Origin: Amyelois transitella
Taxonomy: Eukaryota; Arthropoda; Insecta; Lepidoptera; Pyralidae
DNA: 64,000 bases
Reading direction: 5' to 3'
Assembly (NCBI RefSeq): GCF_032362555.1
Contig: NC_083521.1
Location: 10,081,001 to 10,145,000, forward strand
The notes below the pieces were generated by a model. That model was not told the DNA's origin. It saw nothing but the letters and a program-made list of their open reading frames with translations, and ran no database searches. Each line of letters starts with the position of its first letter. Position 1 is the stretch's first letter. Below, one piece after another: positions 21,319-59,300 of this stretch. The translations under genes and the position numbers were made by a program.

Positions 21319-21469
21319 TCGCGCGTGCCTTACTACGGGTGCTAACATGTAGAACACCAAACTGTTTCTTACTATTTAATTAGAGGTACGTAAAATAAAT
21401 ACTCATGTAAAATTAAACGAGGTTTTAATATAAAATCATTGTACTTCAACAATCAGAAGCCCAGAACCC

Positions 21470-21538
21470 CAGGCCCCCAGGCCCCCAGGCCCCCAGCCCC
21501 CCAGGCCCCCAGGCCCCCAGCCCCCCAGGCCCCCAGGC
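21470..21538. repeat. CCCCAGG-type minisatellite at the SMC2 stop codon
   Basis: About nine tandem variants of a 7-8 bp unit begin two bases past the SMC2 stop codon (21540-21542). On the SMC2 coding strand these are runs of five or six G separated by short linkers, so the 3' UTR has strong G-quadruplex potential. Confidence 0.85.
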
Positions 21539-21539
21539 A

Positions 21540-24500
21540 TCACCGGCGCGTGTTGACGGTGCGCTGCACCGACGACATGCCGTCCACGAACTTGGTGCGG
21601 AAGAGAACATTGGCGTTGTTGAACATGCCGTCTTTCAGGGAGACGATTATGAACTGGAACAATGATAAAATAACATGTTCATCTTTATTGACCGAAAATA
21701 CAATACGTATTTAGGTATTTACAATACGTATTATACGTATTTTTACAATATGTATTTAGGCGGTGAGGTGGCAACCTGTCACTATTTGAATATTGACGGC
21801 CTCTGTGGCGCAGCGGTAATACGCTTGTCTGTGACATCGGAGGTCCCGGGTTCGAATCCCAGCCAGGGCATGATGAGAAAAGAACTTTTTCTGATTGGCC
21901 TGGGTCTTGGATGTTTATCTATATTAAGTATTTATTATAAAATTTAGTATCGTTGAGTTAGTATCTCGTAACACAAGTCTCAAAGAACTTACTTCGAGGC
22001 TAACTCAATCAGTGTAATTTGTCCCGTATATATTTATATTTATTTATTTAAATATGAATTCTTTCATTAAGCCAAACAGCTGAAAGTGGCCATTCAGTGT
22101 TTTCAAGACTGTTGGCTCTGTCTGCCCCGAAATGGATACGGATGTGATCGGGTGTGTGTAGCACAAAAGTAGGCCTTAATACATACATACTCGTACATAC
22201 ATAAAATGCATGTAATCATGACATTTCAAAAAATAACTAGGATGTTCTTATGCCATCTATAATAGCAGTCCTTACTTAAAAATATAGTCTATTTATTTTG
22301 AATATATAAATTAGCACGATTATATGTAAAATAATGTCGCAAATACCAAGCAGGTAATTAGAGAAATATGTGAAGTCGTATAAAATGAAAAAAAACGTAG
22401 TACATCTAAATGTATAAATGTATAGCGGGCATATAACGCGCATACCGTCGCCACATTGGTTCAACTTATATACCCTCGACTAGGCTCACGTAAGGTATAT
22501 AAGTTGAGAAGTCAGCTTAGACTAAAAAACTATATATTCCGAGGTCTTCGGACTAAGACATTCGGCGATGGCACACCTGTGAGTGTTTGAAATGGTTCTT
22601 CAGCATATGCCCTATATTCTGCGTGTGCGACAGGTCCAACGCGGCGTCCACCTCGTCCAGGATGTAGAGCGGCGCCGGCTTGAACAGCAGCATGGCCAGC
22701 ACCAGCGACAGGGCCACCAGGGAGCGCTGCCCGCCCGACAGTTCCCCCAGGGACTCCTTCCACGTGTTGTTGAAGCCGACTTTCACCTGGAAGAGGGCAG
22801 GTTTACATATTGATAGAGGTATAATTGAGTTTTAATAAGAATTGCGTGTAGCCTTGGCTTTAGTCTGTCTCTTAGTTCAGTTTAACCCAAAGATTTGACG
22901 GTTTGTTATTTGTATACATATAATCACGAGTTTATCGCTTGCGAAATAGACAGAGACAAGAGTCTTGAAAAGATTGATAGGCCACGTTCAGCTGTTTGGC
23001 TTAATGACAGAATTGAGATTTAAATAGTGTCAGGTTGCTAGCCCGTCGCCTAAAAAAAGAATCCCAAATTTTTAAGCCTATACCTTAGTTAGGTGTAGTT
23101 ATTCAAATAAATAAATTATTAGTCTAATTTCGTTAAATCTCGGGCGTTTTCGGTAAGCTTCGGATTGTTTAGTCCGGACGGCGCACGAGCATTTAATTGC
23201 TGCGAACATTTTCATGAACTATGTTTTGTCTCACACGCGACGCGTTTTTATATACCACAGGAATTGTATCAGTGGCTTCCGTGCGTTCACCTATCGTGTT
23301 GCCCGCGGCGCGACCGCTATTAGGTCGCTTTTCGCGTAACTTGTGGAAACGTTATTTTCATACAACCACTCGAAATTCTAAGCATAATATTTACCTATAT
23401 AACGGTTAGAATTTTGAAAGAAAAAGTCCAATCTTATGTCAGAACGCGATATTTTTAACTACATGCATATTAAATATCATTCGAACCGGTCCAGCGGTTT
23501 AGCTGTAAAAGCGTAAAAGACAGAGTTTCGCATACATACATACATACATACATACATACATACATACATAAAATCACGCCTCTTTCCCGGAGGGGTAGGC
23601 AGAGACTACCTCTTTCCACTTGCCACGATCTCTGCATACTTCCTTCGCTTCATCCACACAGAGTTTCGCATCTATATAGTAATGAGGTATGTATGTGGTG
23701 GTTGTGTGCCCGCCCACAGGCTGCAGCACCGACCTCGAGCCCGTCCAGCACGCCGGCCCCGCGCGGCGGCGCCAGGCGCGCCTGCGCGCCCGGCAGCAGC
23801 GCGCTGAAGATGGCGCCGAAGTCCTTCGTCACCTGCGCGCGCGCAACACATTGGGTTACTTGTGGGAAGAGATACCAACTCAAAGAGCCACTTTGTGTAA
23901 AAACCTAACTCACTTATCGAGATCCAAATTCAAATTTTCAAATTCATATTCAAAATTTTTATTCATTATTATGGGACACTTCATATCACTTAATAATTGT
24001 CATATCTTTTGGTTTCACAACAATGTTGACGTTAAGTTTACTGCCGCTTCCAAAGCGTCAGTTCAGTACAGAAGCAACGGTAACAAAATGCACTGACTGC
24101 CGCATTTTCTTCAACAGCGTCAACTTCACAACTATCCAAACTTAAAATACATACGTATAGTCAAGTCTATATCCCTTGCGGAGTAGACAGAGCCAACAGT
24201 CCTGAAAAAACTGAATGGCCACGTTCAGCTATTTGGCTTAATAATAGAATTGAGATTCAAATAGTGACAGGTTGCTAGCCCATCGCCTAAAAGAAGAATC
24301 CCAAGTTTGTAAACCTATCCCTTAGTCGCCTTTTACGACATCCATGGGAAAGGCATGGAGTCGTCCAATTATTTTTTGTATTGGTGCCGGGAACAACAAA
24401 CAGAATACAATTTTTAAATAGAAATAATCCTCAAATTCCTCTCCAGTAGAGGTAAAACTGAGACAATACCAAAACATCGATGATACAGTGTCATCGACTC

Positions 24501-27500
24501 TTGTCTGACCTCTGCAACTTTTTGATGATCAATCACTTCACATTACCTGCGCACACGCCGCCACCAATGTACGCCGTTTCTTCTCGTCCAACTCCGCCAT
24601 CACTTGCACTAGTTTCGCGCGATCGGCTTCCACGATCTTCTTTTTGCGCATCACGTCTTGGTACTGTAAATAAATTTACATATCTATACTTAACGGAGTA
24701 AAGTTTGTTATTTTGATTGTTTGTTCGTAAACGCTACGGACCGAACCTGAAAAATTCTTTCACCGATTTAAAAATACATCGATTCATCTATAAAACGTGA
24801 TAAGAAGTTGTGTATATTCTCTCATTCCTTTTTGTTCTGGTGACGAAAATTCTCGGCGAATCATTCGTAGGTTAAACGACCATTGGCCAGTTTCAGACCT
24901 CAAAATATATCCGAATACAGAACATAACAGGCATATGTGTAGAGATGATTCAGACATTTCAAGACTGTTGGCTCTCTCTACCCCGCAAGGGATATAGACG
25001 TGACCATATGTATGTATGTATGATTCAGACTTGGTCCAGACAACAGCTGTCTTCTGCGAAATGAGCAAACGCTTTTAGTAACTGATTTTAAATTTTCGCG
25101 TTGCATTATACTATTTATAAATAACACAGGTATCAAACGCGCACGTAACATACCTTTATTTTATCTCGGACGTGTCGAATCATGTCACAATGATATGTAG
25201 TCACCGAGCGTCTATAAGCGACGATACGTCTGAGATGTATTACTTAAAAACGTTTGAAGTGTTATTAGTTAGATTTTTTTTAAGTTTAGAGATCGTATAT
25301 CTTCTTTCTCGCTCTCTCAATACATACATACAGTCACGTCTATATGCTTTGCGGGGTAGACAGAGCTACCAGTCTTGAAAAGACTGAATAGCCACGTTCA
25401 GCTATTTGGCTTTACGTTAGAATTGAGATTCAAATAGTGACAGGTTGCTAGCCCATCGCCTAAAATAGAATCGCAAGTTTGTAAGCCTATCCCTTAGTCG
25501 CCTTTTACGACATCCATGGCAAAGAGACGGAGTGGCCCTATCCTTTTTTTGTATTGATGCTGGGAACCACACGGCTCTCAATATTTCTTTGATTCCAACA
25601 TTGCTATGAATCAATGAGAATGCCCTATCAGCCAGCTCCCCACCTGCTCCTCCTCCTTGCCCAGCAGCGTGTGCGCCCTGGCGTTGAGCCCCCGCGCCAG
25701 CTTATCCCTCCGCTCGGTGAGCTGGCCCACCCGCTGCCCCGCCACGGAGGCCTGCCGGGCTTCGAAGTCGTACAGCCCGCCGGCGCAGCCGAAGTACTGG
25801 CGCTCTGATGAAATCCACGGGTTTTCGGTCTCAAGTGATTTTATCTGGATAACAAATGATTTGTTGTAGTATAAAATTTAAAGATGATATGCGAGCCAAT
25901 TGTCTGAAATCCGAGGACGCCGAAAACCGCCGGACCAAGTTGAGAGAGAAAAGTCGAAAGGTGAACCCCGGGCTCCGAAACACTTCTGTGGAAAGTGCAA
26001 CCGGGAACACTCACAGATGTGAGATGAGAAAGATAACTGCCCGTGTCGAAAAATCGAATAAAGTAATCATAAAAATCGACATCTCAATTCTATCATTAAG
26101 CCAAATAGCTAAACGTGGCCATTCAGTCTTTTCAAGCCTGTTGGCTCTGTCTACCCCGCAAAGGATATAGACGTGACCATATGTATGTAAAAATCGGCGT
26201 TTAAGAAAAAATTTAGCCTGTAGCGGGAGCGATATTTCTACTTCTATCATGACCAAACGAAGATCTAACACCAAGCTGCCTGCTGCCTGCTGCCTGAGAG
26301 AATTGCGAATACAGATTGCTACCATTTCCGATCTTTTTCATTCCGTAGACTCCTAAAACAATTTATGAAGAAGATTTATTTATTAAACTAGATAAATTAA
26401 ATGTCTCACCCTCTTATCGCAGTCGGCCGCCTCGCTCTGCAGCTGCTTGACCCTGTAGTCCAGCTCCTTGATGTTCAGCTCCAGCTCGGCGCTGCTCTTG
26501 CCCAGCTGCTCCTTCCTCTGCTGGAGGCGGGCGATGTCGCCGCTGCGGCCGGCGATCTCCGCTTTTTGCTTCTTGATGCGAGATTGAAGTTCTTTGACCG
26601 CTTTCTGGGAATCATCAATATCATCATGTAGAAAAGTCATTATCATCGTCATAATAAAATACTAAACGATGTCTGTAATAGAAAGATTTGGCATAAAAAC
26701 GATGTGGAGGATTTAATACGAATGGCTCTCTTGTTTTTTCATTACTCGACTTGACCATTCTTTTCCTGGATTCAAACAAAATTACTAGAGAATACATTGT
26801 GTCAAACTAATATTATAAATACGAAAGAAAGTATTTTATTTATTTGTTTTTACCTCATTACGCGATATCTTCTGAAGCAATCTTCTTGAAATTTTACATA
26901 TATTATTACGTTTATAATTAAAAGTCTGGAGAAGTACATAGGATTCTTTTCATACCGGTAAAAACTTAAATAAAAACCTGTCTATTTTAGAGAGTGGCGC
27001 ATTAAATTCGCGGGTATGTCTTAGAGTCTAATGAATCATATAGATGGCGCTTTATCCGCACGGGCGTAGTTGCGGGTAAGAGTTAGTATATAAGATATAC
27101 TAGCTGTGCCCGCGCCTTCGTCCGCGTGGAAAACTTATTTCGGACATCATTGTAGCTCTCAAGGATGAATATTTCCCCCGTTTTTTTTCACATTTTCTAT
27201 TATTTCTTTGCTCCTAATAGTTGCAGCGTCATGTTATATAGCCTAAAGCCTTCCTCGATAAATGATCTATTCAACACAAAATAATTTTTTCAATTCGAAC
27301 CAGTAGATCCTGAGATTAGCGCGTTCAAACAAACAAACAAACTCTTCAGCTTTACAATATTAGTATATATATAAATATGAATACCTCAGCAGCGGAATGT
27401 TCTGCGGTACATTGGTCCATGGTGTCCCTCAGCGCTACAGCGGCCAGCGCGGTCTGGTCCAGGGCGGCGCGGCTGTTGGCCACGGCTTGCTCCAGCTCGC

Positions 27501-30500
27501 CAACTTCCAACTTCAGCGTCTCAAACTCCTGTTCTCTCTGCTTCCACGAAGTGCTGTGCTTCTCTGCGTCTTTCTTCGCTTTCTTTAACGTCTCTTCTGC
27601 TTTTTTGAACTCTCTGAAAGAGATAAGTAGATGAATTTAGTAGCGTGCTGCTGAAAACAATCGTGCATCATCAATACAGGCCAGAATAACATGTGAAAAC
27701 ATAATATTAATTTTAATAAATATTCTATGAGCCTTTCAACATTTGGTTTTTAGTCGTGCAAGAGTTTCATTTCAAACAGGATAAATTCCAGTAAACGTAA
27801 TGTTACTGAACCCTGAAGGCTTGTTCCCTTGGCATACTGTATGTATGTCCCTTATTTCTTTAACTTTTAGCTCTAACTCATTAGCCTTAGCAGCGGTTTC
27901 CTTCTGGACTAATTGGTCTACACACAACTTATAGAGCCATAAAAACCTATAATTTCATGTATACCTGTCCTTCATATTCAACACCAACTCCTTAGTGGTT
28001 TCCTTCTGCACTTGCTGATCCCTGGCGACGGTTTCTGTCAGTTCCTGGAGTCGAATCCCAAAGACCTTTAAATTTTACCTACCTCTCTCTATGCCCCTTG
28101 ATATCTTTAACTTTCAGCTCCAACTCCTTAGCCTTGGCAGCGGTCTCCTTCTGCACCTGCTGGTCCCTGGTCACGGTTTCCGTCAGCTCCTGGAGTCGCG
28201 TCCTGAGCGTTTCGATCTCGCCGTGTAACTGTGCGTGGGAGGTTGTCGCGAGACGAGCCTTTATCACTTCTAGCTCGTGACTCATTATCTCGTATCTGGA
28301 AATTGAAATATAAATAAAGTTGTATACAATAAGAATAGCTAGCAACCACTGTTACTGTCACTATTGGAATTTCAATTCCATCATTAAATGAAACAGCTGA
28401 ACGTAGCCATTCAGTCTTTACAAGACTGTCAACTCTGTCTACCTCGAGAAGACGTGATTACATCTATGTATGTACAATAAAAATTCAAAGAAGAAAGAAT
28501 TTAAACAGAAAAGTAAACAGTTAAGTAAAATAATGACTCTATGATCTGTCACTATGATTTAATTTTGGGCCTGGTTCCCCGCAATGATTAGCCGGGCTTC
28601 GTGTAAAAACCTGACTCACCCAAGGATCAAGATCAAAATTCGCTCCCCGGGCCTCTCCAGGGAGGTTCAGATGAACTGTAACGTGAAGCTATGTACGTGG
28701 TATGTCATACTTGTGGTGCGTAGCCGCATAGCTGTCGGCGGCGTGCTGCGCGGCGGCGAGCGCGGCCGCGTCCCGCTCCAGGCGCCGCTCGGCCGCCGCC
28801 AGCTGCTGCTCGGCCGCGCGCAGCTGCTGCAGCTGCACCAGCACCGACCCGCCCTGGACGGCCAATGTATGGTTATAGCGAATTCGGTCAGATTCGATAA
28901 GTAGAAGATTAAATGAATTAATTAATATCATTTATAAATAGTTTGTTGAGTTCGTTTATACAGAGAGATTCGCTTCGGAGAGGTGAGAACGATGATAGAA
29001 TTGACTGACTGATACTACAACCCTAAATAGTGGACCATTCTGGTTTAAATTTGGCCCGCAAATAATACCTGTGATGGTAAGCATTCGCTAAGAAAGGATT
29101 TTTGATCTGGAATTCCCGCGAAAATTGATTTAAGCGGGAATTTTGTTTCACGCGGGCGGTTTCATGAAATATATACAAAAATCCCTTTGTCCAGGTCACG
29201 AAGGTCACGCGGCGCGCCGTGGCCATGTATTGTCAGAACAAGCAGTACATATAACCGGTGAGCACTGACCTTCCCCCTGGCGCCCCCGGACAGAGTCCCG
29301 GCGGGGTCGCACACGTCCCCGTCCAGCGTGACAGCGCGGCGCCGCACCCGCGGGTGGAAGGTCACGCGGCGCGCCGTGGCCATGTATTGTCAGAACAAGC
29401 AGTACATATAACCGGTGAGCACTGACCTTCCCCCTGGCGCCCCCGGACAGAGTCCCGGCGGGGTCGCACACGTCCCCGTCCAGCGTGACAGCGCGGCGCC
29501 GCACCCGCGGGTGGAAGGTCACGCGGCGCGCCGTGGCCATGTATTGTCAGAACAAGCAGTACATATAACCGGTGAGCACTGACCTTCCCCCTGGCGCCCC
29601 CGGACAGAGTCCCGGCGGGGTCGCACACGTCCCCGTCCAGCGTGACAGCGCGGCGCCGCACCCGCGGGTGGAAGGTCACGCGGCGCGCCGTGGCCATGTA
29701 TTGTCAGAACAAGCAGTACATATAACCGGTGAGCACTGACCTTCCCCCTGGCGCCCCCGGACAGAGTCCCGGCGGGGTCGCACACGTCCCCGTCCAGCGT
29801 GACAGCGCGGCGCCGCACCCGCGGGTGGAAGGTCACGCGGCGCGCCGTGGCCATGTATTGTCAGAACAAGCAGTACATATAACCGGTGAGCACTGACCTT
29901 CCCCCTGGCGCCCCCGGACAGAGTCCCGGCGGGGTCGCACACGTCCCCGTCCAGCGTGACAGCGCGGCGCCGCACCCGCGGGTGGAAGGTCACGCGGCGC
30001 GCCGTGGCCATGTATTGTCAGAACAAGCAGTACATATAACCGGTGAGCACTGACCTTCCCCCTGGCGCCCCCGGACAGAGTCCCGGCGGGGTCGCACACG
30101 TCCCCGTCCAGCGTGACAGCGCGGCGCCGCACCCGCGGGTGGAAGGTCACGCGGCGCGCCGTGGCCATGTATTGTCAGAACAAGCAGTACATATAACCGG
30201 TGAGCACTGACCTTCCCCCTGGCGCCCCCGGACAGAGTCCCGGCGGGGTCGCACACGTCCCCGTCCAGCGTGACAGCGCGGCGCCGCACCCGCGGGTGGA
30301 AGGTCACGCGGCGCGCCGTGGCCATGTATTGTCAGAACAAGCAGTACATATAACCGGTGAGCACTGACCTTCCCCCTGGCGCCCCCGGACAGAGTCCCGG
30401 CGGGGTCGCACACGTCCCCGTCCAGCGTGACAGCGCGGCGCCGCACCCGCGGGTGGAAGGTCACGCGGCGCGCCGTGGCCATGTATTGTCAGAACAAGCA

Positions 30501-33500
30501 GTACATATAACCGGTGAGCACTGACCTTCCCCCTGGCGCCCCCGGACAGAGTCCCGGCGGGGTCGCACACGTCCCCGTCCAGCGTGACAGCGCGGCGCCG
30601 CACCCGCGGGTGGAAGGTCACGCGGCGCGCCGTGGCCATGTCGCGGCACACCAGCGTGCTGCCGAACACCCACTGCATGGCGCGGCTGCACGACAACATC
30701 ACACATACATACAGGGTGACTTTTAATTCAACTGCATAAATTTAACTGTTAAGTGTACTCAGCTAAAGGATATTTAAAAACGTTAAAAGAAAAATATCAG
30801 TTCATATTTCAGAAAGTACGAAAAAAATAAATGTATCGAAATCCACGATCCTAAATACGTTATATCACCCCGGCCGGCGGAAAAGCGACGCGTAAGATTC
30901 AGAGGTCAACGACACAATTCATTCAGCTGAGCGATCTCGACAACTCTGTATTTTACTTGATCTTGATACTAGAAAAATAATTTATTTTTCAGACATTTAT
31001 TTACATGTTTAGTTTTAATTTCTTTTTGTAGTATTTATGGTCTTTAATAAAGCGTGTGACTATTTTTGAGGGTTTTTTAAATGTGCAAATGATGACGTTT
31101 AATTTAAATAAAAATAGGCTCAAACAGCTCAGATGCATGGGCATAGTCTATGTTTAAAAGGATGCAGTTGTTTTAAATGTCACCCTGTATATCAAAATAT
31201 AAAATACATATTTTTAACTATCATGTCGACTTATCTCTCATAAACTTTAGAATCACCTGACGTGTGGCGGGTAGGATATGAGGTCCAAGGCCAGCTGCAC
31301 GTTGTCCGCGCCTCCTCCCACGTCCTGCGCCAGTTCGAGCGTCTGTCTGTCTATGACTTGGCCGCTGATCTTGTTCAAAGGTATTATTGTGGTGCGGGAT
31401 TGGAGGTTGCCTTTCTGCAGCAGCAGCTTGCTGGTCACATCAGTGTCCACCACCACGTTGTAAAGCTGGGGGAATTAAATGCGGTTGAATTATTGAATTA
31501 CATTGTATGCTTATTTCAAAACTGTAAAAGTTGAGCTATTTGACAAGTTTTTAAAAACCAGTTCATATTTTTTAGTAGGAGTAAAAAATCTATAATATAA
31601 AAATGAATCGCAGAATGTGTTGGTAAGCGCATAACTCAACAAAGCCTGGACCAATTTGGCCAATTCTTTTTTTTAAATGTTCGTTGAAGTTCGAGGATGG
31701 TTTTTACGAGGAGAAGAACTATAATTATTGCCGGAAAACCCCTAAAAACAGTCCCAAAAGTTTTCTAACTATAACGTAGAGTCAATATGAGCTTTATAGC
31801 TTTTGTACAAAGTTCACTGTTGTCTATCAACGTAGGTGTGTTCAAAACGTCATAATATTTAAATGCACTTTATTATCGCTGTACAAAATTCAAATTCAAT
31901 CATATTTAAATTTCAAATTTAAATTTTTTGCCCGATTATAAAATAGGCAAGAACAAAATACAGCTACATTACAAATATTTTTGACGGAACGAAGTCTGTC
32001 GGGTCCGCTAGTAATTAATAAAAGTTGTATGTTTTAATTGTGGTACATTATTGCTGGAAAAAATCAAATATAAAAATTAATATATCAATAGCGCGCAAAA
32101 AAAAATCGGAATTATTCTTGATAAATAATCCGACCATGATTGTGTCGAATTTGGGCAGGTTTCTGCTGTCTGCTTTTACAAAATCGTTGTCCAAGGCAAA
32201 TGTGTTTGACAGACTTGGTAAAATATTATAATTAAATCACACAAAAACAATGTAAAGCAGTTTCGAAGGCTATTACTATACTAATATTATAAAGCTGAAG
32301 AGTTTGTTTTGTTTGTTTGTTTGTTTGTTTGTTTAAACGCGCTAATCTCAGAAACTACTGAACCGATTTGAATAATTCTTTCACTGTTAGATAGTCTATT
32401 TATCGAGGAAGGCTATAGGCTACATTTTATCCCGGATTTCCTATGGGAAACGTCAACAATGCAGGTGAAAGTTGAATGAGTCTGCCATCTGCGAGCTTTC
32501 CACGCGAACGCTGCGCAAACCAACAAAGATATAGTAAAACAATGTACTAAAGATGTGAAGTACTCATTTTTTGCCACAAAAAAGTCCGCGAGAGCATACA
32601 TCTATCTCTTAAGGTTTACTTACAATAACCACTTTTATGTTCATTTTTTTAGATTATTTTATTTAAGATTAAGTTATTTTGAAACCAGTTTTCTTTAATT
32701 CAGCATTCATCCTTATCCAAATAAATATGTTTATTACTTTCGGCTTTTCATGTAGACTATAATTGCCATTTACAGTATATAAATCAGACGAATAGGTTTT
32801 GAGATATAGTCGTTATAAGCTATTTGCAGCGAAACATTTAATACGGCGAACCAGGAGGATGTTTTTTTTTAGGAGGAGGATGTTTGCAAAAATAAATATG
32901 ATGCCCAAAATAACTATTCCACGCGGACGAAGTCGCGGGCACAGCTAGTCCTCTAATAACACCAGTAGGCGCAAGTAGGCAAATGTCAAGTTTAAGAGCA
33001 AGTGACGTCATCATCTATCCGACCAATCAAGAGCGTTTTGTGTCACGTGACAAACGTTTAAAAACGTGCATTTTTTATAAATAATCATTGTTAATAAATA
33101 ATCATTTTTAAACTCATAATAAATACTGATGACAGTAGTTAACACTATATTTTTCACATTGTCAAATAGCCTATTGCATTCAATAATACAATAGGCTATT
33201 TGACAAAGTGAATAAGAAATGATCGAGTTCCAAACATACATACAACAAAATTTCGTCCACAGTTGATTGGTAGTAAAAGTAAACAATTAATTGATTTATG
33301 TAATTTTAATATTGATCTAAAAAGAATTCAAAGTCACATGTGGTATTGACCACTCAATCTCAATTCTATCAATAAGAATGTGGCCTATCTATATATACAT
33401 AAGTCTTTTCAAGACTGTGGGCTCTGTGTTCCTCGCTAGGGATATAGACACATGACTATATGTGTGTATACATGAAAGATATAATAACATTATTATACCT

Positions 33501-36500
33501 TGCCACCGGCAGCGGTTTCCAAAGCAGTGCAGTAGACGGGATCTTTAACGTCGATCAGCCTACAAATAGTGCCTGTAAGTAAGTGTAATACATATATTAT
33601 TTAATTCCGATGTCATAAATAAAACGAACGAGTCAACAGTTTAGAATGAAATCTGGAACACGATAAACTACATAATAAATTTAAAATGAGCCTTTATATA
33701 GTCAAATTAATATTAATTCACGACGCATTGTTGCCGCACTGTGCCTTCTAACTATCTCACTCACTCTATACAATATATTCTAGAATAGAGTGAGTGTATT
33801 ATCTATACATATAATAAATCTGTAGAAAGGTCAATTCTGTACATTGAAAATATTGAAAAAATAAATAGCAGGGGGTGTTACTGGATCGATACCAAACACA
33901 AAAATGTGATTAAAAAAATTTTTGTCTGTCTGTCTGTATGTTCAGGCATCACGTGAAAACTAACGGTTCGATTTTGATGAAACTTGGTATAATTATACCT
34001 TATTATCCTGGGCGTAAAATAGGATACTTTTTATCCCGAAAAAATACGAAGAAAAAAAAATCTTAATTTTTCAGTTTATCCATAGACGTTGTTCTGTAGA
34101 ACCGCGAACACACGTTGCGTTACCCGCAGTGGATTTAGCGCCGTAACCTGTAGCGCCTAAAGTCGGCTTTGGCTTGAACCGTTTGCTGCACAAGCGGGCC
34201 GCTACTAATAACTATGAAAAAAATACTACATAGCTACATTAATTCCCATCAAGCTGAAAATGAGTATAATTATTTAAAACACAATCAAAAGCATTATTTC
34301 AAAATTCCCCATGATTCCGGTTTAAGGAAAAAAATTTACTCACGGTCAAAGGTAAAAAATGGGTGTATCGCAATTTTCTTTAAAACGGTAAGTTTTTCAA
34401 ATCGGAAAATTACCTCAGACATAAATTGTAGATCATAAAGTTATCTATAAAAAAAAGGTATCAATAATTTTTTTCAACAAAGCTACCGTTTCTGTGATAT
34501 AACGATGCAAAAAGTTGCAAGCGTCATAATATGCATCCGTTTCCTTGCCACCTCTGAGGTAGTGTACTATTAGCGCGTTTTTTTTTTTTACATTTTTATT
34601 ATTAAACTTGAAAAAGTCTGAAATAGGTTAGAATAAACACGTGTTTTCACTACGCAGTGGCACTCAAGACTAACTTTCGTATTTATTATTTAAAAAAGAA
34701 ATAGAATAACCCTAAGTGAAGAAAATCATCTTAGGACAATAATAGAGGTTACAATTATCAAATTCAATGCAATAATCAAATTAAAACTAAAGCTACTTCT
34801 AAAAAGAAGAAAAAAAGATGACTACAAACTAAAATTTAATTTATAAATTGTACAGTTCTTGCATAGCATCAACATGCGGGAATGTGCCCAGAAGGCTGGC
34901 AGCATTGCCAATTCGAATGGCAATGCTGTTTCTCTGAGCCAGATAATTTCCAGCCCTCCGGTCAAGAGATACCTCAATCAGCTTTTTCGACAATTGTCGG
35001 AAAAGCTGATGGGCAGATAGGCCCCCCGGTCCCAGAGTTTCTACCCCAAAAGGTTCAAAAGTATATAGGTAAGATATTACCGATAACTACATACATACAT
35101 ACATACATAAAATCACGACTCTTTCCCGGAGGGGTAGGCAGAGACTACCTCTTTCCACTTGCCACGATCCCTGCATACTTCCTTTGCTTCATCTACATTC
35201 ATAACTCTCTTCATGCAAGGTCGGCGGTTTCGGGTACTTTTGACCTGACCCTTTACCAGGACGTCCTTAATTTGATCAAGATATGTTCGTCTAGGTCTTC
35301 CCACCCCGACCTTTCCCTCCACACTCTCCATGTATATCTGCTTAGTCAACCTGTTTTCATTCATCCTCTCCACATGACCGAACCATCTCAACATACCCTT
35401 TTCTATTCCTGTAACTACATCTTCTTTCACATCACAACATTCCCTTATCACACTGTTCCTTATCCGGTCACTCAATTTCACACCCAACATACTCCTTAAC
35501 GCTCTCATTTCCACTGCATTTATTCTGCTTTCGTGCTTCTTTTGCCATACCCAACTTTCACTCCCATACATTAATGTCGGGACCAACACGCCCCTGTGCA
35601 CAGCCAGTCGAGCCTTTTTGGATAGTTTCTGACTGCTCATAAAGGCATGCAAAGCTCCATTCACCATGTTCCCCGCGTTCACTCTCCTTTCAATATCACT
35701 ATCACACTTGCCATCTGATGTAAACTTTGATCCCGATAACTACATATTTGCGCCTTTTGAGGTTTTTTGCCTCATTTGAACGGCCTTAGATTTAGTAACC
35801 TGAAGATGACACGGCGCAAGTGTGTCGACACAAGTAGCATCCCACACCAAAGGCCGCCCCAATCTCCAGGGTACCAAAGTCATACCATCCGGTCTCTTGG
35901 CATCATCCCGAGCCAGACCGTTTGGTTCTAGGAGGATTATATCATTTAGGGCGGCACGGCGCCCTAAACGGCCGGCACTCCTAGGACATGAGAGGCCGTG
36001 GTGTCCATAGCCGACAACGGCATCCCCGCAAGGACAACTATTATTAAAGACTAACGGTATTTCATGTGTTGAGCATTCTGAGATAAAGCAGCTATACGAC
36101 CCTAGCCACGTACACAATTAAACAGAGAGACAGATGTTGTCTCAAGGTTTCACTACAGTATAAATGAAGGGACTGGGTTTCATTATACTAATGTATATTT
36201 TATATTTTGAATTCAAGTTAAAATTACCGACAGAACAATATTTTTACTTATATTACTGCTACATAGAGTATATACGAGACGTGCTTATGCATATTATGAC
36301 GCTTGCAACTTTTTGCATCGTAATATCTCAGAAACGGTAGCTTTATTGAAAAAAATATTGATTCCTTTTTATAGATATCTTTATGATCTACAATCTATGT
36401 CTGAGGTAATTTTCCTATAAAACTTACCGTTTTGAAGAAAATCGTGAAAAATCCCATTTTCTTACCTTAGACCTTGGGTAATTTTTTTCCTTAAACCGGA

Positions 36501-45500: not shown

Positions 45501-46301
45501 AAGGCTGCTAAGGGATAGGCTTACAAATTCGGGATTTTTTCTAGGTGATGGGCTAGCAACCTGTTGCTATTTGAATCTCAATTCTATCATTCAGCCAAAT
45601 AGCTGAACATAGCCTGTCTTTTTAAGACTGTTGGCTCTGTTTACTCCACAAGGGATATAGATGTGACGTAATGTAAAGGTTGCTTCTTGTTGCCATCATC
45701 ATCATAATCATACTTGGTTTTGATATCCTATTTGTGATGCACCCAGGCAGTAGACTGAAAAGCATTCAGGTGCTAGGGCAAACAAATCATGAAGGTACTT
45801 TTATGTATATCGTCACATCTTTATATGTAAATTAAAGGGCATTCATTAAAGACAACCATAATGTGACTAAACTTAGTTGGCCCAAATTTTACTAGCAGCT
45901 GTTACCTGTCGAGTAACTGTGATTTCATCATGGTTCTCATAACCGATAGGACACTGCTTCTTGTCCCTGTTGTCAAATGTGATGCTAACAGTAGCTTTGG
46001 TGATCCCTGCCTGTCCATGCTTGTATATCAACTCTTGGAGACTTCCAGCCCGAACCTAAAACACAACATTCATATTGGCGGGAGAAATTCATACAAAACA
46101 AACAAGCAAAACCCTGTCAGAAAATAAACTCACGTTTGACAAATTTGTTATTCCTAACACAAAACATATCGAATCCAAAATATTAGACTTCCCAGTGCCG
46201 TTGAGGCCAGTTATTGCATTGAATTCGGGGTCGAAGCCGGTGACTTCAACTCTGTTGCCGTAAGATTTGAATCCGTCTAACACTATTGACTTTATATACA
46301 T
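21540..46301 (-). CDS. SMC2: SMC2, condensin core ATPase, 22 exons, complete
   Basis: Exons in order: 46301-46134, 46055-45906, 45377-45216, 44726-44616, 43639-43518, 43152-42996, 42357-42166, 39284-39149, 38444-38269, 37035-36852, 33572-33499, 31465-31257, 30685-30526, 28853-28711, 28295-28083, 27613-27385, 26604-26410, 25844-25644, 24663-24547, 23832-23734, 22786-22577, 21653-21540. All phases agree and give 1173 aa. The N-terminal Walker A is GLNGTGKS (32-39), and the Q-loop Gln is about 147. Coiled coil occupies about 170-490 and 670-1020. The hinge (about 500-667) includes '[12 protein letters not shown]' and ends '[13 protein letters not shown]'. The C-terminal head has the ABC signature LSGGQ (1082-1086), Walker B 'LYILDE' (D1110, E1111) and 'FIIVSLK'. 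SMC2 pairs with SMC4 and the condensin subunits to compact mitotic chromosomes. Introns carry many transposons. Four exons (7, 10, 13, 15) have duplicated 3' ends downstream. Confidence 0.97.
23534..23658 (-). mobile_element. Short 5'-truncated LINE tail
   Basis: A (CATA)n tract plus the last roughly 90 bp of the LINE 3' end. It is flanked by the 13-bp duplication cagagtttcgcat at 23521-23533 and 23659-23671. It lies in the SMC2 intron between exons 20 and 21. Confidence 0.85.
27099..27367 (-). mobile_element. Helitron-like repeat in the SMC2 intron between exons 16 and 17
   Basis: Reverse orientation: CTAG-type terminus with hairpin at 27100-27125 and the 'ctttaca-atattagtata' start at 27350-27367. 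It ends 18 bp from the exon 16 donor. Confidence 0.78.
27846..27935 (-). repeat. Second decayed duplicate of SMC2 exon 15 3' end
   Basis: Reads '[20 protein letters not shown]' on the minus strand, matching exon 15 '[19 protein letters not shown]'. It lies about 110 bp beyond the first decayed copy and has no splice acceptor. Confidence 0.85.
27960..28060 (-). repeat. Decayed duplicate of SMC2 exon 15 3' end
   Basis: Matches exon 15 from about 28203 to its donor at an offset of 145 bp, and retains a GT donor-like end ('GACAG|GTATAC'). Its reverse strand still reads '[20 protein letters not shown]', a slightly shortened version of the exon's coiled coil. There is no good acceptor in front of it. 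An alternative exon cannot be fully excluded, but decay is more likely. Confidence 0.85.
29200..30639 (-). repeat. 157-bp tandem array built from the 3' end of SMC2 exon 13 (about 9 units)
   Basis: Each unit holds the last 114 nt of exon 13 (38 codons of the hinge end, '[20 protein letters not shown]' through 'GGARGK'), the donor GTCAGT and 43 intron bases. Nine full units are followed by a 27-bp partial one at 29200-29226. Units look identical by eye. The authentic exon is the most upstream copy on the minus strand (30685-30526). No unit has a plausible 3' splice site, so downstream copies should be spliced out with the intron. Confidence 0.97.
30712..31187. mobile_element. MITE, about 476 bp, TA target duplication (copy 1)
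   Basis: It begins CAGGGTGACTTTTAA and ends in the complementary TTTAAATGTCACCCTG, giving about 27-bp imperfect terminal inverted repeats, with TA on each side. No coding capacity was seen. It lies in the SMC2 intron between exons 12 and 13, 26 bp upstream of exon 13. The ends and TA duplication suggest a Tc1/mariner-type non-autonomous element. Confidence 0.85.
31585..32013 (+). mobile_element. Another CTAGT-ending repeat in SMC2 intron 11
   Basis: Runs from 'ctataatataaaaatgaatc' to 'ctgtcgggtccgctagt', a common lepidopteran Helitron-like family with a 'gcgcataactc' body. Related short elements with 'ggggcggg-cgctagt' ends lie at 918-1100 and 1671-1882. Confidence 0.65.
33735..33778 (-). 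repeat. Third, fragmentary copy of SMC2 exon 10 segment
   Basis: The sequence 'gttgccgcactgtgcctt' and the following bases match both exon 10 (near 36950) and its decayed copy (near 36805). It shares with the decayed copy the 'ctatctcactcactct' junction, so it derives from the duplicate, not the exon. The intervening 2.9 kb is largely inserted transposons. Confidence 0.75.
34870..36117 (-). pseudogene. Retroelement C-terminal fragment, split by a LINE
   Basis: The part at 36117-35740 reads '[20 protein letters not shown]', '[16 protein letters not shown]' and '[10 protein letters not shown]'; after the LINE insertion the frame resumes at about 35079-34880 with '[11 protein letters not shown]' and '[19 protein letters not shown]'. 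These patterns recur at the C-terminus of a class of invertebrate reverse-transcriptase-like repeat proteins. I cannot name the element class with confidence. No reverse transcriptase core is present. Confidence 0.6.
35094..35732 (-). mobile_element. 5'-truncated copy of the same LINE
   Basis: Its reverse strand encodes the last roughly 190 residues of the LINE protein at 51354-54464, almost residue for residue ('[20 protein letters not shown]' to the C-terminus), and ends in a (TATG)n tail. The 14-bp sequence ccgataactacata flanks it on both sides (35080-35093 and 35733-35746), a clear target-site duplication from target-primed reverse transcription. It interrupts an older element whose coding remnant resumes on the other side. 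Confidence 0.92.
36715..36845 (-). repeat. Decayed duplicate of SMC2 exon 10 3' end
   Basis: Lies just past the exon 10 donor (exon ends at 36852). It resembles exon 10 bases from about 36979 to the donor, offset by 144 bp, with many substitutions and a small deletion that breaks the frame. It is the same arrangement as the two fresh arrays but older. A further fragment of it is at 33735-33778, beyond a nest of transposons. Confidence 0.88.
37277..38127 (+). mobile_element. Internally deleted Ty3/gypsy-type LTR retrotransposon
   Basis: Two 202-bp LTRs (37277-37478 and 37926-38127) appear identical base for base; both begin TGTGGG and end CCCACA. A primer-binding-site candidate TGGGGGCTCGTCCGGGAT (37486-37503) matches the classic site complementary to the 3' end of tRNA-Pro. 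Only about 450 bp of internal sequence remains, including a 3' pol remnant. Flanks are TATATA on both sides, consistent with a short target duplication but ambiguous in a TA repeat. It sits in the SMC2 intron between exons 9 and 10, antisense to SMC2. Identical LTRs imply a recent insertion of an already deleted, non-autonomous copy. Confidence 0.9.
37588..37913 (+). pseudogene. Remnant of gypsy-type Pol C-terminus (integrase GPY/F-like)
   Basis: An open stretch ending at 37913 contains '[21 protein letters not shown]', '[11 protein letters not shown]' and 'DRYVLNKIG'. This is the usual chromodomain-less GPY/F region at the end of Ty3/gypsy integrases. No protease, reverse transcriptase, RNase H or integrase core remains, so this is a fragment between the two LTRs and not a host gene. 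Confidence 0.8.
39655..42279 (-). repeat. 146-bp tandem array built from the 3' end of SMC2 exon 7 (about 18 units)
   Basis: Each unit holds the last 114 nt of exon 7 (38 codons, '[20 protein letters not shown]' through 'GVLGE'), the splice donor GTGAGT, and the next 32 intron bases. The array is 2625 bp, or 17.98 units, and the units look identical by eye. Only the promoter-proximal unit (42279-42166) is joined to the rest of exon 7; the others fill the following intron. The GC-rich units contrast with the AT-rich intron. 146 is not a multiple of 3, so read-through shifts frame and hits a stop. Confidence 0.97.
43250..43440 (+). repeat. GC-rich dispersed repeat, two copies in SMC2 introns
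   Basis: 'ggggcccggggtccgccttc' through 'ggatttcagtccatttgctc' resembles the reverse complement of 25870-26010. Both copies are in SMC2 introns. The class is unknown. Confidence 0.5.
44119..44593. mobile_element. MITE, about 475 bp, TA target duplication (copy 2)
   Basis: Same orientation and about 95% similar by eye to the copy at 30712, with small indels. TA flanks both ends. It lies in the SMC2 intron between exons 4 and 5, 22 bp downstream of the exon 4 boundary. Confidence 0.85.
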
Positions 46302-53300: not shown

Positions 53301-56300
53301 TTTTTGGCCAAGAGTCAAAAAGTCTATTGCACATTCGTAGATCTGGAAAAGGCCTATGACAGAGTTGAGAGGAATGAATTGTGGTCAGCACTTTCTATGC
53401 ATGGGGTGAGCAGTCTCTTAATACGAGCACTGAAATCCTTATATGAGGATTCGAGTGCTTGTGTCAGGATAAACGGAGCGCACACTGAGTGGTTTAAGAT
53501 TGAGAAAGGCGTTAGGCAAGGATGTGTTGCGTCACCGTGGCTGTTCAACCTATTTATGGATAGCTGCTTGACAGATTTGAAAGAGTCTAAAAGTGGATTA
53601 AGGATGAATGAGTTACTCGTCAAATGTCTGCTCTATGCCGACGATCAGGTTATACTGGCGTCATCAGCGGAGGAGTTACAGGAGATGGTAAACTGTATGC
53701 ATGAAGCTTTAAAAGAGAAAGGAATGAAAGTGAACGTAAGTAAAACTAAAACACTGGTTTTTGAAATGGAGAAAGAAATGACAGCATGTAATATTTTGAT
53801 TGGAGGAGAAAGAGTGGAGCAAGTGAAAGAGTTTGTATATCTAGGATCAAAGTTTACATCAGATGGCAAGTATGATAGTGATATTGAAAGGAGAGTGAAC
53901 GCGGGGAACATGGTGAATGGAGCTTTGCATGCCTTTATGAGCAGTCAGAAACTATCCAAAAAGGCTCGACTGGCTGTGCACAGGGGCGTGTTGGTCCCGA
54001 CATTAATGTATGGGAGTGAAAGTTGGGTATGGCAAAAGAAGCATGAAAGCAGAATAAATGCAGTGGAAATGAGAGCGTTAAGGAGTATGATGGGTGTGAA
54101 ATTGAGTGACAGGATAAGGAACAGCGTGATAAGGGAATGTTGTGATGTGAAAGAAGATGTAGTTACAGGAATAGAAAAGGGTATGTTAAGATGGTTCGGT
54201 CATGTGGAGAGGATGAATGAAAGCAGGTTGACTAAGCAGATATACAAGGAGAGTGTGGAGGGAAGGGTCGGAGTGGGAAGACCTAGACGAACGTATCTTG
54301 ATCAAATTAAGGACGTCCTGGTAAAGGGTCAGGTCAAAAGTACCCGAAACCGCCGAGCTTGTATGAAGAGAGTTATGAATGTGGACGAAGCGAAAGAAGT
54401 ATGCAAAGATCGTGGCAAGTGGAAAGAGGTAGTCTCTGCCTACCCCTCCGGGAAAGAGGCGTGATTTTATGTATGTTATGTATGTATGTATGTATTAAAA
54501 CCGTGTGGTTCCCGGCAAAATCGTGCGGTTCCCGGCACCAATAGAAAAAAGAATAGGACCACTCCATCTCTCTCCCATGGATGTCGTGAAAGGCGACTAA
54601 GGAATAGGCTTATAAACTTGGGATTCTTCTTTTAGGCGATTGGCTAGAAACCTGTCACTATTTGAATCTCAATTCTTTCAATCTTAAAGCCAAATAGCTG
54701 AAAATGGCCTACCAGTCTTTACAAGACTGTTGGCTCTGTCTACTGCAAGGGATATAGATAGATAGATAAAACTCTTTATTGCAGCATAAGAGTAAAACAT
54801 ACAAAACAACACAAAGCAGATATAGATGGTACAAAGGCGGACTTATCGCTAAAGCAATCTCTTCCAGTCAACCTTTGGGTAGAAGGAAACCAAACAGGAC
54901 GTATAGACGGGATTATATGTATGTATGTAATAACAACACTGGGAACACTGTCCCCCAGCCCACGTGTGCGTGGCGGACCCCGGCAGCCCCCGCGTGTCGT
55001 CGCTGCTGCCGCTGCGCGCGGGCCCCGGAGCCCCGGGCGCGGACCCCGAGCTGCTGCCCCGCTTCCTGCCGCTGCCCGGCCGCGTGCTGCTCTATGCTTC
55101 CAACTACATCGCCATCGTGTCCAGTAAGCGAACTAACATGTCAAACTAAAGTTCTATATAACTAAAGGTCTTCTATTCTAAGTTTAATTAATATTGTGAA
55201 GTTGACGTTGTTGAAGAAAATGCTGCAGTGCAGTTTGTTACCGCTTCTTCTGCACTGACGCCTTGGAAGCGGCAGTAAACTTAGTTTTTAAGTAATTTAT
55301 TTGACGTCAACCAATGTTGTTAAACCATACGTTTTGACAATTATTAAGCGATATATAGTATCCTATAGTAATGAATAAAAATTTTGAATTTGAATTTTGA
55401 ATTAAAGAAGCCGTCCTTTTTTATTGAATTTATTTGTCTTCTAATTTTATAAAAGATAACGTTGCTGTATGATAACATTGCCGAACTGATATTGACAATA
55501 TCGTTCATGCTTGACGTTTTGAATTTGAAAAAGAAAATAAGTTTAATAGACAAGAGACAACAGAGGGTATTTTGCATAACTATAAAACATTTTTGGCGTC
55601 AAAATTGGGACGTAATGTATTTAATTGCGTGTACGTTGTCGTGTTGTTAACTAATTTACATTGTTTTAAATCCTTGTCATCATCTCGTATTCCATCGTTA
55701 AGCTATACAGTCGAACATGGCATTCTACTCTTTTCGAGATTGTTGGCTCTGTTAACGCCGTATAGAATGGGGATGTTCATTATATCTTCTTTCTCCTCCT
55801 GGCTCTAGTCCCAGTTGCATTCTCACCGCTCTGGAGAGGAGCCCGGGGTTTGCTTTTGACCATGGATCCTGGATTGGGTGAGTCAGGTTTTTACACGAAG
55901 CGACTATAACCTGACCTCCGCAACCTTTGCAGGGGAATCCATCCCGTATTTGACGTCATAATCTAATATATTTAAACAAGCAATATAAATCAGGATCTCG
56001 GAAACGGCTCCAACGATTTTCATGAAAGTTACAGATTAGGGGCTTTTCGGCTCAAGGAATCGATTTATCAAGGTCCTAGGTTCGAGAAAAGCTCGGTTCC
56101 CAAGATATATGAACATTTTAAAAACCGCGTTTTAAGATACTATATCAGCGCCATCTCTGGTAGACCGGGTACTATATTATTAACGTTAATTACAGCGTCA
56201 GGCGCGAACGACAAGCCGGAGTACATCGACGTGAGCTCGGAGAACGACCGCATCCTGACGGCGGAGCTGTGCGGGCGCGTGCCGCTGCTGTTCAGCCGGC

Positions 56301-59300
56301 AGCACGGCGTGCTGGCGCTCGTGCTGGACGACGTCAGGGCCGCGGCGGCCGGCGCGCCCCTCGCCGACGTGTACGACGACAGCCTGTGCCTCTACGACAT
56401 CGATCCCCACGAGGTGACGCTTCTTCGATTGAAGGAATCTCGCACGGCGTGCTGGCGCTCGTGCTAGACGACGTCAGAGTGACGTCAGACATGACGTTAT
56501 TACGTTTGAGACTGTATTAAAGTGGAACTCAGGACTCCGAAGCTTAATGACAGATGGTGTAACTGGTAATGCGCATTATTTTTACGTTGAAACGTAGTTT
56601 TTGAAAGAGAAACGCACAAACACATATTTCTTGGACACCAGACCGGTATTGAGCTTTGCACTACCTAAAAGAATGTTGTCATTCCTTTTTTACGTTACCA
56701 TGCCGGGAATCACACTAACATCTTATTATCGTATTTTTTTTTTAATTCAATAAAGAAATTCACTTGCAGGTCAGCGCAGTAACAACAGACGTTTGCGGCA
56801 AGTTAAAAACTGCCTTCCTGTTCTACGTGCGGCGCGACACAGCCGCCTGCCGCCGCCTGCTGGACGAGCTGTTCCCCCCCGCCGCCGGCGACGAGAAGGA
56901 GCTGGACTCCGTGCTGGACCGCACGGTCATCAGGATCGCCAGGGAGATATTGGATGATATACCAGCGGGGGATCCCAGGTATGTATGTTATAGGTATATA
57001 TGATTCTCTTTCCTGTAGGAATATTGGAAGATCCTCTCTAAGTCTCACACTACATGAACTGAACCTAAATGACAAATTTCTAATTTCTAAATCCACTAAA
57101 AGTAACATACAAACATAAAATCATGCCTGCTACCCGGAGTGGTAGCGGAGACTACATCTTTTCACTTGCCACGATCTCTGCATACTTCCTTCGCTTCATT
57201 CACATTCATAACTCTCTTCATGCAAGCTCGGCGGTGACCTGACCCTTTGCCAGGACGTTCCTAATTTGACCAAAAGTAAATGTTATGAATTTCTTTCGAC
57301 AGATGGAAACAACGCGTGACCGGCCAATCGGCGAACATAGCCCTCGGAAGTTCCGCCGCTTTAGACATCGCGGCGCAATTGCGAGACAAACAGAGGGCGT
57401 TCTCGTTGTTCGTGGAGATGCTCACCAACACCGGCCTCGGCGGCAGGCTGTACCGCGTCACTGACGGTGAGTGTGCTGTTGTACAGCGGCCTGCATGTTA
57501 CCATGTACAGGATTAACACTATTATAAGTTACACTGATGTGTGTATATGTGACTTTACGGCAGTGGCTTGTCTCTAAAATCGTTTTGATGTAAAGCAACT
57601 ACTTCTTCCTCCTGGCTTTAGTCTCAGTTGCATCCTCCCGCTCCGGAGAGGAGCCCGGGGTAAGCTTTTAACCATGTATCCTGGTTTGGGTGAGGTTTTT
57701 TACGCGAAGCGACTCCCATCTGACCTCCGCAACTTTTGCAGGCGAACCTCACCCGTATTGGATCGATCGTTGTTACACATCCAGTTACCTGAATGCGCGG
57801 GTTTCCTCACATTAAGAGCATTTGCTTTAACAGATCAGAGGGATTTTAATGTCGATCTCGACCCATTTTGTTCTTACTTTACATCCTGATCCTGGTAATA
57901 ATAGCCAACCTTGTATAAATTTATGTATTTTGCGTCTTTTTTCCCAGAAACGGACGGGTCAGTGATTAGCACGGAATGCGCCCTGTGCCGGCTGTCGGAA
58001 CAACTGGCTGCCGCCATCGCTCTGCGGAGGCTGCAACGCGGGCCAGCGCAGCAGCTCATCGACGCTGCTATCTACCAGGTGGGAACTGCTGAAGATAATT
58101 ATTGAAGACTAGTGTCATAGACCATTATCTTATCAAACATGAGTTTAGCAACCGTTTAGTTATAAGAGTGCTCTCGTGATTGCTTTTTGTAACAGCGACT
58201 TTTCTTGACTGCCTACTACAAAATCGGGTGTTTGAATTGAAACGAACGCCAACAAATTGATGACTTTTAAATAATATCAACGGCTACCAATGTTGTTTTG
58301 CTTTGATTGAGACTTTAAGGCCAGTTAGTGACGCGCTCACGTAGATATTTTATTTGTTAATATTGTTGTTTTCGGCTAGTATGTCACAGTCATAAATATT
58401 AATGTCATTTAAAAAAAAATGACAATTGTTGTCAAAGAGTAGCGCTATTAGGTTAATTGTATATTTGTTAAAAAAACATGTTTCTTTATGGTGACACCCA
58501 CTTCGCGCCAAATTCAAATATCGAAGGCGTCGTCTCAAGTCCGTGCACTAAGAAACTAGATCGTGGCCGAAAATGTGTATATTTGAAGTAAAAAAAAAAG
58601 TTGTTACTTTTGGCATTAAGGCTACCTGTTGTACATTATTTTAGGTGCGATTAAGTTGAAATAAATAAGTAAACATAAAAATGTATTATAGCGACTAAGG
58701 GAAAGGCTTATAAACTTAGGATTCTATTAGGCGAAGGGCTAGCAACCTGTCACTATTTGTATCTCAATTGTATCATCAAGCTAAACAGCTGATCGAGGCC
58801 TATCAGTCATCAATCAGTCAAAAAAAAAAAAAATTTTTTTATTCATTATTATAGGATACTATTATATCGCTTAATAATTGTCGTATGGTTTAACAACATT
58901 GGTTGGCGTCAAATAAATTACTTAAAAACTAAGTTTACTGCCGCTTCCAAGGCGTCAGTGGAGAAGAAGCGGTAACAAACTGCACTGCAGCATTTTCTTC
59001 AACAACGTCAACTTCACAATATTAAATTATACTTAGAATACTTAGAACAGTCGCAAGGGATCAGACGTGTGTATGTGCAGGTTGTGTGCGGCGGCGACGA
59101 CGGCGAGGAGGAGGCGGAGACGCGCGCGGCGCTGGCGGCGGGCGCGCTGTCGGCGGCGGACGCGTGCTTCCGGCGCGCGTCGCGCGTGTCGCGCGTGCTG
59201 CGCGCGCTGGCCGCCGGCGACGCCGCACACGTCGTGGTGGTGAGTCGGCTGACATCATTCACATTCAAAATTCAAATTCAAAATTCAAATTCAAAATTCA

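What the first reader, a model, noticed from the sequence alone, without database searches (positions are those of the whole stretch)
21540..56478. A recurrent process: exon-end-plus-donor duplication with a 140-157 bp period at five exons
SMC2 exons 7, 10, 13 and 15 and NUP133 exon 9 all show duplication into the downstream intron, with periods of about 146, 144, 157, 145 and 140. Exon parts are about 114, 128, 114, 121 and 112 nt. Copies range from fresh to heavily decayed, so events are spread over time. One explanation is survivorship: a duplication spanning an exon's 3' end and donor leaves the first copy intact and the rest are spliced out, so it is tolerated. The tight period, close to nucleosome size, is not explained by that alone and hints at breakage or template switching linked to chromatin or co-transcriptional structure on GC-rich exons.
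Basis: partly seen in the sequence, partly recalled or inferred. Interest (0 to 1): 0.92.

Follow-up and report, generated by a model that had tools for sequence, protein, structure and literature searches.

The report
Recurrent exon-end duplications in moth introns
In moths and butterflies, short pieces of genes that span the end of an exon and its splice signal are repeatedly copied side by side into the next intron, sometimes many times over, without apparently harming the gene, although they can confuse automatic gene predictions.

Summary
The window is Amyelois transitella (my SMC2 model equals the NCBI protein). SMC2 exons 7, 10, 13, 15 and NUP133 exon 9 are each followed by a tandem copy of the exon's last 112-128 nt plus donor and 16-41 nt of intron, periods 146, 144, 157, 145, 140. 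Two are perfect arrays (18 and 9.2 copies); three are decayed. The same kind of event occurs elsewhere in this genome and in SMC2, NUP133 and KLP61F gene models of 13 other lepidopteran species: 16 of 139 named lepidopteran models against 1 of 207 others. So the recurrence is real and not confined to this locus. The 3' bias is real among cases I could classify (21 to 2, with ascertainment caveats), and tolerance through use of the first donor explains it well. The tight 140-157 bp period does not generalise (others about 111-222 bp; single copies 512 and 573 bp away), and no nucleosome link was shown. It is a new variant of known internal tandem duplication. Whether exon ends are preferred over plain intron when duplications arise is the open and most interesting question.

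The parts
21540..46301 (-). SMC2 gene, 22 coding exons, 1173 aa
   Evidence: spliced model identical to NCBI A. transitella SMC2 P0001
42166..42357 (-). SMC2 exon 7 (192 nt); its last 114 nt are the first copy of array A
39655..42279 (-). array A: 146-bp unit x 18, perfect; unit = 114 nt exon 7 end + 29 nt intron + 3-nt filler at the junction
   Evidence: TRF; 0 of 2479 mismatches; sequence
30526..30685 (-). SMC2 exon 13 (160 nt); its last 116 nt are the first copy of array B
29200..30641 (-). array B: 157-bp unit x 9.2, perfect; ends inside a partial copy next to a repeated 7-mer
   Evidence: TRF; 0 of 1285 mismatches; sequence
36852..37035 (-). SMC2 exon 10 (184 nt), source of copy C
36718..36835 (-). 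copy C: decayed copy of last 128 nt of exon 10, period 144
28083..28295 (-). SMC2 exon 15 (213 nt), source of copies D2 and D3
27968..28058 (-). copy D2: decayed copy, period 145
56198..56413 (+). NUP133 exon 9 (5' end approximate; 3' end from the donor), source of copy E
   Evidence: tblastn with Plodia NUP133; donor position
56442..56477 (+). copy E: surviving 36-nt core of a truncated copy, period 140

Best explanation
Short local tandem duplications (roughly 110-220 bp) keep arising in lepidopteran genes. When one spans the 3' end of an exon and its 5' splice site, the original exon keeps its acceptor and the first donor, so splicing is unchanged; the extra copies have a donor but no acceptor and are removed with the intron. 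Such duplications are therefore tolerated, whereas whole-exon or acceptor-side duplications are mostly removed by selection. Some two-copy duplications then expand in place into many identical copies (unequal exchange, replication slippage or repeated template switching), and later decay as neutral intron sequence. Shown: structure, in-place location, range of ages, recurrence in several genes and species, 3' bias among classified cases. Inferred: use of the first donor in vivo, selective removal of the other classes, and the breakage and repair step (end joining or template switching, suggested only by a 3-nt filler in array A).
For: In-place copies following their own exon. The 40 SMC2 matches listed for the 327-Mb genome all lie at this locus (39 of 92 first-look candidates were scored); the 9 matches of the array A unit all lie in the array. 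Further cases in A. transitella: gene 3 on C17 and two in a kinesin gene on C30, a locus chosen from a domain search before its repeats were known. Other species: repeats in SMC2, NUP133 and KLP61F gene models. Units mapped on A. transitella exons end at 0, -1, 0, +2 residues from an exon end (four SMC2 units) and +1, +1, +1, +1, -1 (five NUP133 units, approximate exon ends); two KLP61F units end at exon ends read directly in L035. 16 of 139 named lepidopteran models against 1 of 207 others, Fisher p = 3e-6 (P0286, a 7-aa low-complexity repeat, not counted). 3'-hit SMC2 exons are long, p = 0.001. Decayed copies C, D2, D3 and those of gene 3 differ from the exon mostly as GC in the exon, AT in the copy; differences in gene 3 fall on third codon positions in 21 of 39 and 22 of 43, as expected for a constrained exon beside a neutral copy.
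Against: Domain searches of the own genome show, by eye, no clear fresh partial-exon array among 298 listed matches (kinesin 74, kinase 145, myosin 79; for kinase 130 of 534 and for myosin 65 of 125 candidates were scored), apart from a myosin cluster on C12 that looks like known mutually exclusive exons and one ambiguous kinase pair on C4; so long fresh arrays are uncommon and SMC2 is unusually loaded. A second kinesin locus (C19) showed only two SINE-like pairs. Plain tolerance predicts mostly intron-only duplications, yet 8 of 12 non-SINE tandem loci in 325 kb involve exon sequence; 5 of these 8 are the window's own, and outside the window it is 3 of 7. One kinesin copy (573 bp away) shows no donor. 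No RNA data were seen. In other species only predicted proteins were seen, not DNA. The two Cydia NUP133 cases are probably shared by descent. D differences are 21 of 31 at third positions, somewhat more than a neutral copy would give. For the window alone the exon-length effect is not significant (p = 0.10).
Confidence: 0.72

Rival explanations
1. A mutational bias, not only tolerance, aims the duplications at exon ends (chromatin, transcription, R-loops or replication stalling on GC-rich exons), with a preferred length near one nucleosome.
For: Five SMC2/NUP133 periods fall in 140-157 bp; 8 of 12 non-SINE tandem loci in 325 kb involve exon sequence; arrays A and B and copy E are very GC-rich.
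Against: Five of the eight are the cases for which the window was picked; outside it, 3 of 7. Other periods are about 111-222 bp, and single copies lie at 512 and 573 bp. GC of hit exons is at most weakly higher, p = 0.09 and 0.2; no unusual folding. Exon-anchored pairs also stay detectable longer because one side is conserved (reasoning). Gene content of the flanks is incompletely known.
Confidence: 0.3
2. Nucleosome-sized circular DNA cut from exons is copied by rolling circle and recombined back into its source, giving arrays of identical copies at one stroke.
For: Unit size and perfect copies; germline circles from oligonucleosomal fragments are reported in mammals (PMC10581685, abstract only).
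Against: No copies elsewhere among the matches listed; [quoted passage not shown] periods vary widely.
Confidence: 0.1
3. The copies are functional: alternative exons, decoy donors or splicing regulators.
For: Third-position excess in copies D2/D3 (21 of 31); Ostrinia and Scirpophaga gene models include copies as coding sequence.
Against: Different exons are hit in different species; decayed copies lose frame and differ towards AT; 36 of 40 named lepidopteran SMC2 models show no such repeat.
Confidence: 0.08
4. Assembly or annotation artefact.
For: Perfect multi-copy arrays can be miscounted in assemblies; the other-species cases are gene predictions.
Against: Decayed copies C, D, E and those of gene 3 cannot be assembly errors; 13 other species show repeats and clean models exist beside them.
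Confidence: 0.05

Closest known systems
[quoted passage not shown]
   Same: Local tandem duplication across exon-intron structure, tolerated because splicing removes or absorbs the copy
   Different: There an AGGT-bearing exonic or an intron-exon segment makes a new intron; here the exon's 3' part plus donor is added to an existing intron, which only grows, at times as a many-copy array
Mutually exclusive exon clusters from tandem exon duplication (PMC6071210, abstract read)
   Same: Tandem copies of exon plus flanking intron in one gene
   Different: Copies here lack the original acceptor and decay; no sign of alternative use was seen
Minisatellites / satellite arrays in introns (general knowledge)
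   Same: Arrays A and B are formally perfect tandem repeats with 146- and 157-bp units
   Different: The unit is a coding exon end and each array starts inside its own source exon; all 9 listed genome matches of unit A lie in the array

Membership tests
[quoted passage not shown]
   the SMC2 model with one intron after each hit exon gives the full 1173-aa protein identical to NCBI P0001; no intron is added at the model level
[quoted passage not shown]
Mutually exclusive exon cluster | each copy bears acceptor and donor and keeps an open frame | tested here: not met
   units start inside the exon, so the original acceptor is not copied; copies C, D and those of gene 3 are decayed
Mutually exclusive exon cluster | copies are used alternatively in transcripts | not testable with these tools
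   no RNA data available
Dispersed satellite or transposon-borne repeat | copies of the unit at other loci | tested here: not met
   unit A: 9 matches listed, all in the array; SMC2 protein: 40 matches listed, all at the locus, with 39 of 92 candidates scored
Nucleosome-phased duplication | periods cluster near 145-157 bp beyond this locus | tested here: not met
   other cases at about 111-222 bp and single copies at 512 and 573 bp; few cases, several inferred from protein lags
Nucleosome-phased duplication | breakpoints match nucleosome edges | not testable with these tools
   no nucleosome map available

The most novel reading that the evidence does not exclude
Lepidoptera carry a lineage-wide germline mutation process that preferentially copies exon ends, not just any intron sequence, into tandem arrays; it keeps seeding exon-derived donor-bearing sequence into introns and so supplies raw material for new exons and donors, while corrupting a noticeable share of gene models.
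Probability: 0.3. Interest if true: 0.85.

Novelty: new variant of a known kind. Interest (0 to 1): 0.66.

Why it matters
It gives a lineage in which internal tandem duplication at splice boundaries can be seen at many ages, from perfect 18-copy arrays to relics, with many sequenced species at hand. That makes it possible to test where such duplications arise, how selection through splicing filters them, and how often they become new exons. It also has a practical side: 16 of 139 lepidopteran models of three conserved genes contain suspicious repeated segments, most of those classified being exon ends, so annotation pipelines for moths and butterflies would gain from a check for this.

Tried and rejected
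Rejected or led nowhere: (1) DNA folding of the units, no signal. (2) GC content of the exon as main driver: weak. (3) Dispersed copies or capture by mobile elements: none among the matches listed. (4) Eight paper searches, two of them not aimed at a prior report (on circular DNA, on intron creation); those aimed at one were (0 papers). I saw the top 8-15 titles and abstract beginnings of each, not all papers found (24, 233, 75, 36 and 22). None of the titles seen describes exon-end arrays in lepidopteran introns; this does not show that none exists. (5) A per-gene rate from domain searches: searches give no clear fresh array, checked by eye, and their sensitivity for short or decayed copies is low. 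(6) blastp mapping of repeat units hid tandem copies by its own culling, so it was redone by pairwise alignment; there the second Cydia strobilella unit did not align and was assigned by its likeness to the C. fagiglandana unit, and the Colias unit (d = -10) was placed by inspection. (7) labelled the frame of gene 3 wrongly; the third-position counts quoted are re-read with the frame that its printed translations show to be open. (8) The lag scan gave 19 loci; I set aside 7 as SINE-derived by eye. Its repeat mask also dropped two non-exon loci (window coordinates 13829 and 83420) and the microsatellite-rich kinesin array; with all three counted, the figure would be 9 of 15. (9) A Pfam search failed and was not repeated, so the names SHC-like, KIF3-like and the retroelement names rest on inspection and recall.
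Full report
The window and the genes. The window lies at G000:C17:10081001-10145000 of a 327-Mb genome. Splicing SMC2 from the minus strand gives 22 exons and 1173 aa, 100% identical to NCBI SMC2 of Amyelois transitella. NUP133 lies on the plus strand from about 47333.

The five cases. Array A (39655-42279) repeats the last 114 nt of SMC2 exon 7, the donor and 29 nt of intron, with a 3-nt filler at the junction, 18 times at 146 bp. Array B (29200-30641) repeats the last 116 nt of exon 13 and 41 nt of intron 9.2 times at 157 bp. Both are perfect: 0 of 2479 and 0 of 1285 copy-to-next mismatches, so they are very recent or kept alike. Exon 10 (period 144), exon 15 (145, plus a third copy at lag 247) and NUP133 exon 9 (140) are decayed. 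A test of all 22 SMC2 exons on both sides gave 3'-side hits at exons 7, 10, 13 and 15, a weak 21-nt 3'-side match at exon 9, and no 5'-side hit in 44 tests. NUP133, with approximate exon borders, gave one hit in 32 tests.

More cases in the same genome. In 191 kb of flanking C17 (part of it masked) a third gene has an exon followed by two decayed copies at lags of about 209 and 399 bp; copy 2 keeps a GT at the donor place, copy 3 has GC. The differences fall on third positions of the open frame, so the exon is coding. In 50 kb of C2, an SHC-like exon (named by inspection) has a 5'-side copy, acceptor plus about 50 nt of exon, 512 bp upstream. In 10 kb around a kinesin gene on C30 (KIF3-like by inspection), picked from a domain search before any repeat was known, an exon end of about 18 nt with its donor is present in four copies 186-222 bp apart, and another exon has an old copy 573 bp downstream in which no donor is recognisable. 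A second kinesin locus (C19) showed only two SINE-like pairs. I count 8 cases on the 3' side, the donor-less one included, and 1 on the 5' side in this genome.

Other species. Gene models of three conserved genes were searched for tandem repeats of their own sequence (at least four 6-residue words at one lag). Lepidopteran names were counted by eye from the listings. SMC2: 4 of 40 named lepidopteran models (Ostrinia nubilalis exons 13 and 16, Arctia plantaginis exon 18, Spodoptera exigua exon 21, Spodoptera litura exon 10) and 1 of 77 others, a crab with a 21-aa unit. NUP133: 7 of 40 against 0 of 72. KLP61F, which lies on another contig (C19): 6 of 59 against 0 of 58, or 5 of 59 without the low-complexity case P0286. 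Five unnamed models that rank among the Lepidoptera in the first two lists and three in the third were left out; none has a repeat; unnamed models further down stay with the others. Together: 16 of 139 against 1 of 207, Fisher p = 3e-6, in 13 species besides A. transitella. The listings show the best 120, 114 and 120 hits only. Models are not independent: the two Cydia species probably share NUP133 events, and one species can have two models. Mapped on A. transitella exons (NUP133 ends approximate), four SMC2 units end 0, -1, 0 and +2 residues from an exon end, and five NUP133 units +1, +1, +1, +1 and -1; two more NUP133 units were placed by inspection; two KLP61F units end at exon ends read in L035. 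S. litura is the reverse (5' side), Maniola hyperantus NUP133 looks like a whole-exon copy, and Bombyx mandarina NUP133 and several KLP61F units are unclassified. Counting what I could classify, 21 are on the 3' side (8 here, 13 in other species) and 2 on the 5' side (binomial p = 7e-5). Gene predictors may catch the two sides with different ease, and shared events inflate the count.

How it works. Copies follow their source exon, and no copy elsewhere appears among the genome matches listed (in one search, 39 of 92 candidates were scored), so they arise in place. A copy of an exon end with donor but without acceptor leaves the first donor available and should be spliced out; the NCBI protein agrees with this, but I saw no transcripts. 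The exonic breakpoint has to fall inside the exon, which fits the finding that SMC2 exons hit on the 3' side in any species are the long ones (160-229 nt, p = 0.001; window alone p = 0.10). In decayed copies the differences are mostly GC in the exon and AT in the copy (C 12 to 2, D2 10 to 3, D3 10 to 0, gene 3 24 to 12 and 24 to 7), and in gene 3 they fall on third positions in 21 of 39 and 22 of 43: a constrained exon next to neutral copies. The breakage step is inferred; the 3-nt filler of array A would suit end joining or template switching.

What is not explained. In 325 kb, after setting aside 7 SINE-derived loci by eye, 8 of 12 tandem loci involve exon sequence, although by my estimate exon borders make up only a few per cent of the sequence. 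Five of the eight are the window's own, for which it was picked; outside the window it is 3 of 7, one of these at a locus chosen for its gene. A longer detectable life of exon-anchored pairs gives perhaps a factor of two (reasoning, not measured). This hints at a bias in where duplications arise, no more. Against a uniform process: 298 domain matches of three other families show no clear fresh array by eye (kinase and myosin lists scored only part of their candidates), while the SMC2 search shows 13 repeated matches for exon 7 and 8 for exon 13. So SMC2 is unusually rich in them.

The period. Five values within 140-157 bp in two neighbouring genes are striking, but elsewhere the values are about 190-209 and 186-222 bp at DNA level and about 140, 135 and 111-114 bp as inferred from lags in read-through gene models. 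Nucleosome involvement is therefore unproven. Units do not fold better than shuffles (z from -0.26 to 0.90).

Known or new. Internal tandem duplication across exon-intron structure is known, as is intron gain by it (PMC4974935, passages read, citing Rogers 1989, Gao and Lynch 2009 and Hellsten 2011) and its role in mutually exclusive exons (PMC6071210, abstract). The recurrent, many-copy, donor-side form across Lepidoptera did not appear among the titles I saw. I file it as a new variant of a known kind.

Noticed in passing
51279-54464 (+): A 1061-aa open frame that reads like a non-LTR retrotransposon (endonuclease plus reverse transcriptase) inside a NUP133 intron (family named from recall).
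   Followed up: no
37264-38142: Two near-identical stretches of about 230 bp 649 bp apart flanking a retroelement-like open frame in an SMC2 intron; perhaps an LTR-element remnant (named from recall).
   Followed up: no
21467-21538: Nine copies of an 8-bp repeat directly after the SMC2 stop codon.
   Followed up: no
27837-28058: Differences between SMC2 exon 15 and its two intron copies fall on third codon positions in 21 of 31 cases, slightly more than expected for neutral copies.
   Followed up: partly
29185-29220: Array B ends inside a partial copy, with the 7-mer GTGACCT on both sides of the junction, so its far end is not the original breakpoint.
   Followed up: partly
G000:C12:10167187-10168555: Four tandem matches to the same part of the myosin head domain; looks like the known mutually exclusive exons of muscle myosin (identity recalled).
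   Followed up: no
window coordinates 102406-103122 (C17, outside the window): A minisatellite with lags of about 72-76 bp, AT-rich, with no exon recognised in it.
   Followed up: no
Ostrinia nubilalis models P0002, P0235, P0243: This species shows repeated segments in SMC2 and in two KLP61F models at several places, so it may be an especially rich genome for the process.
   Followed up: partly
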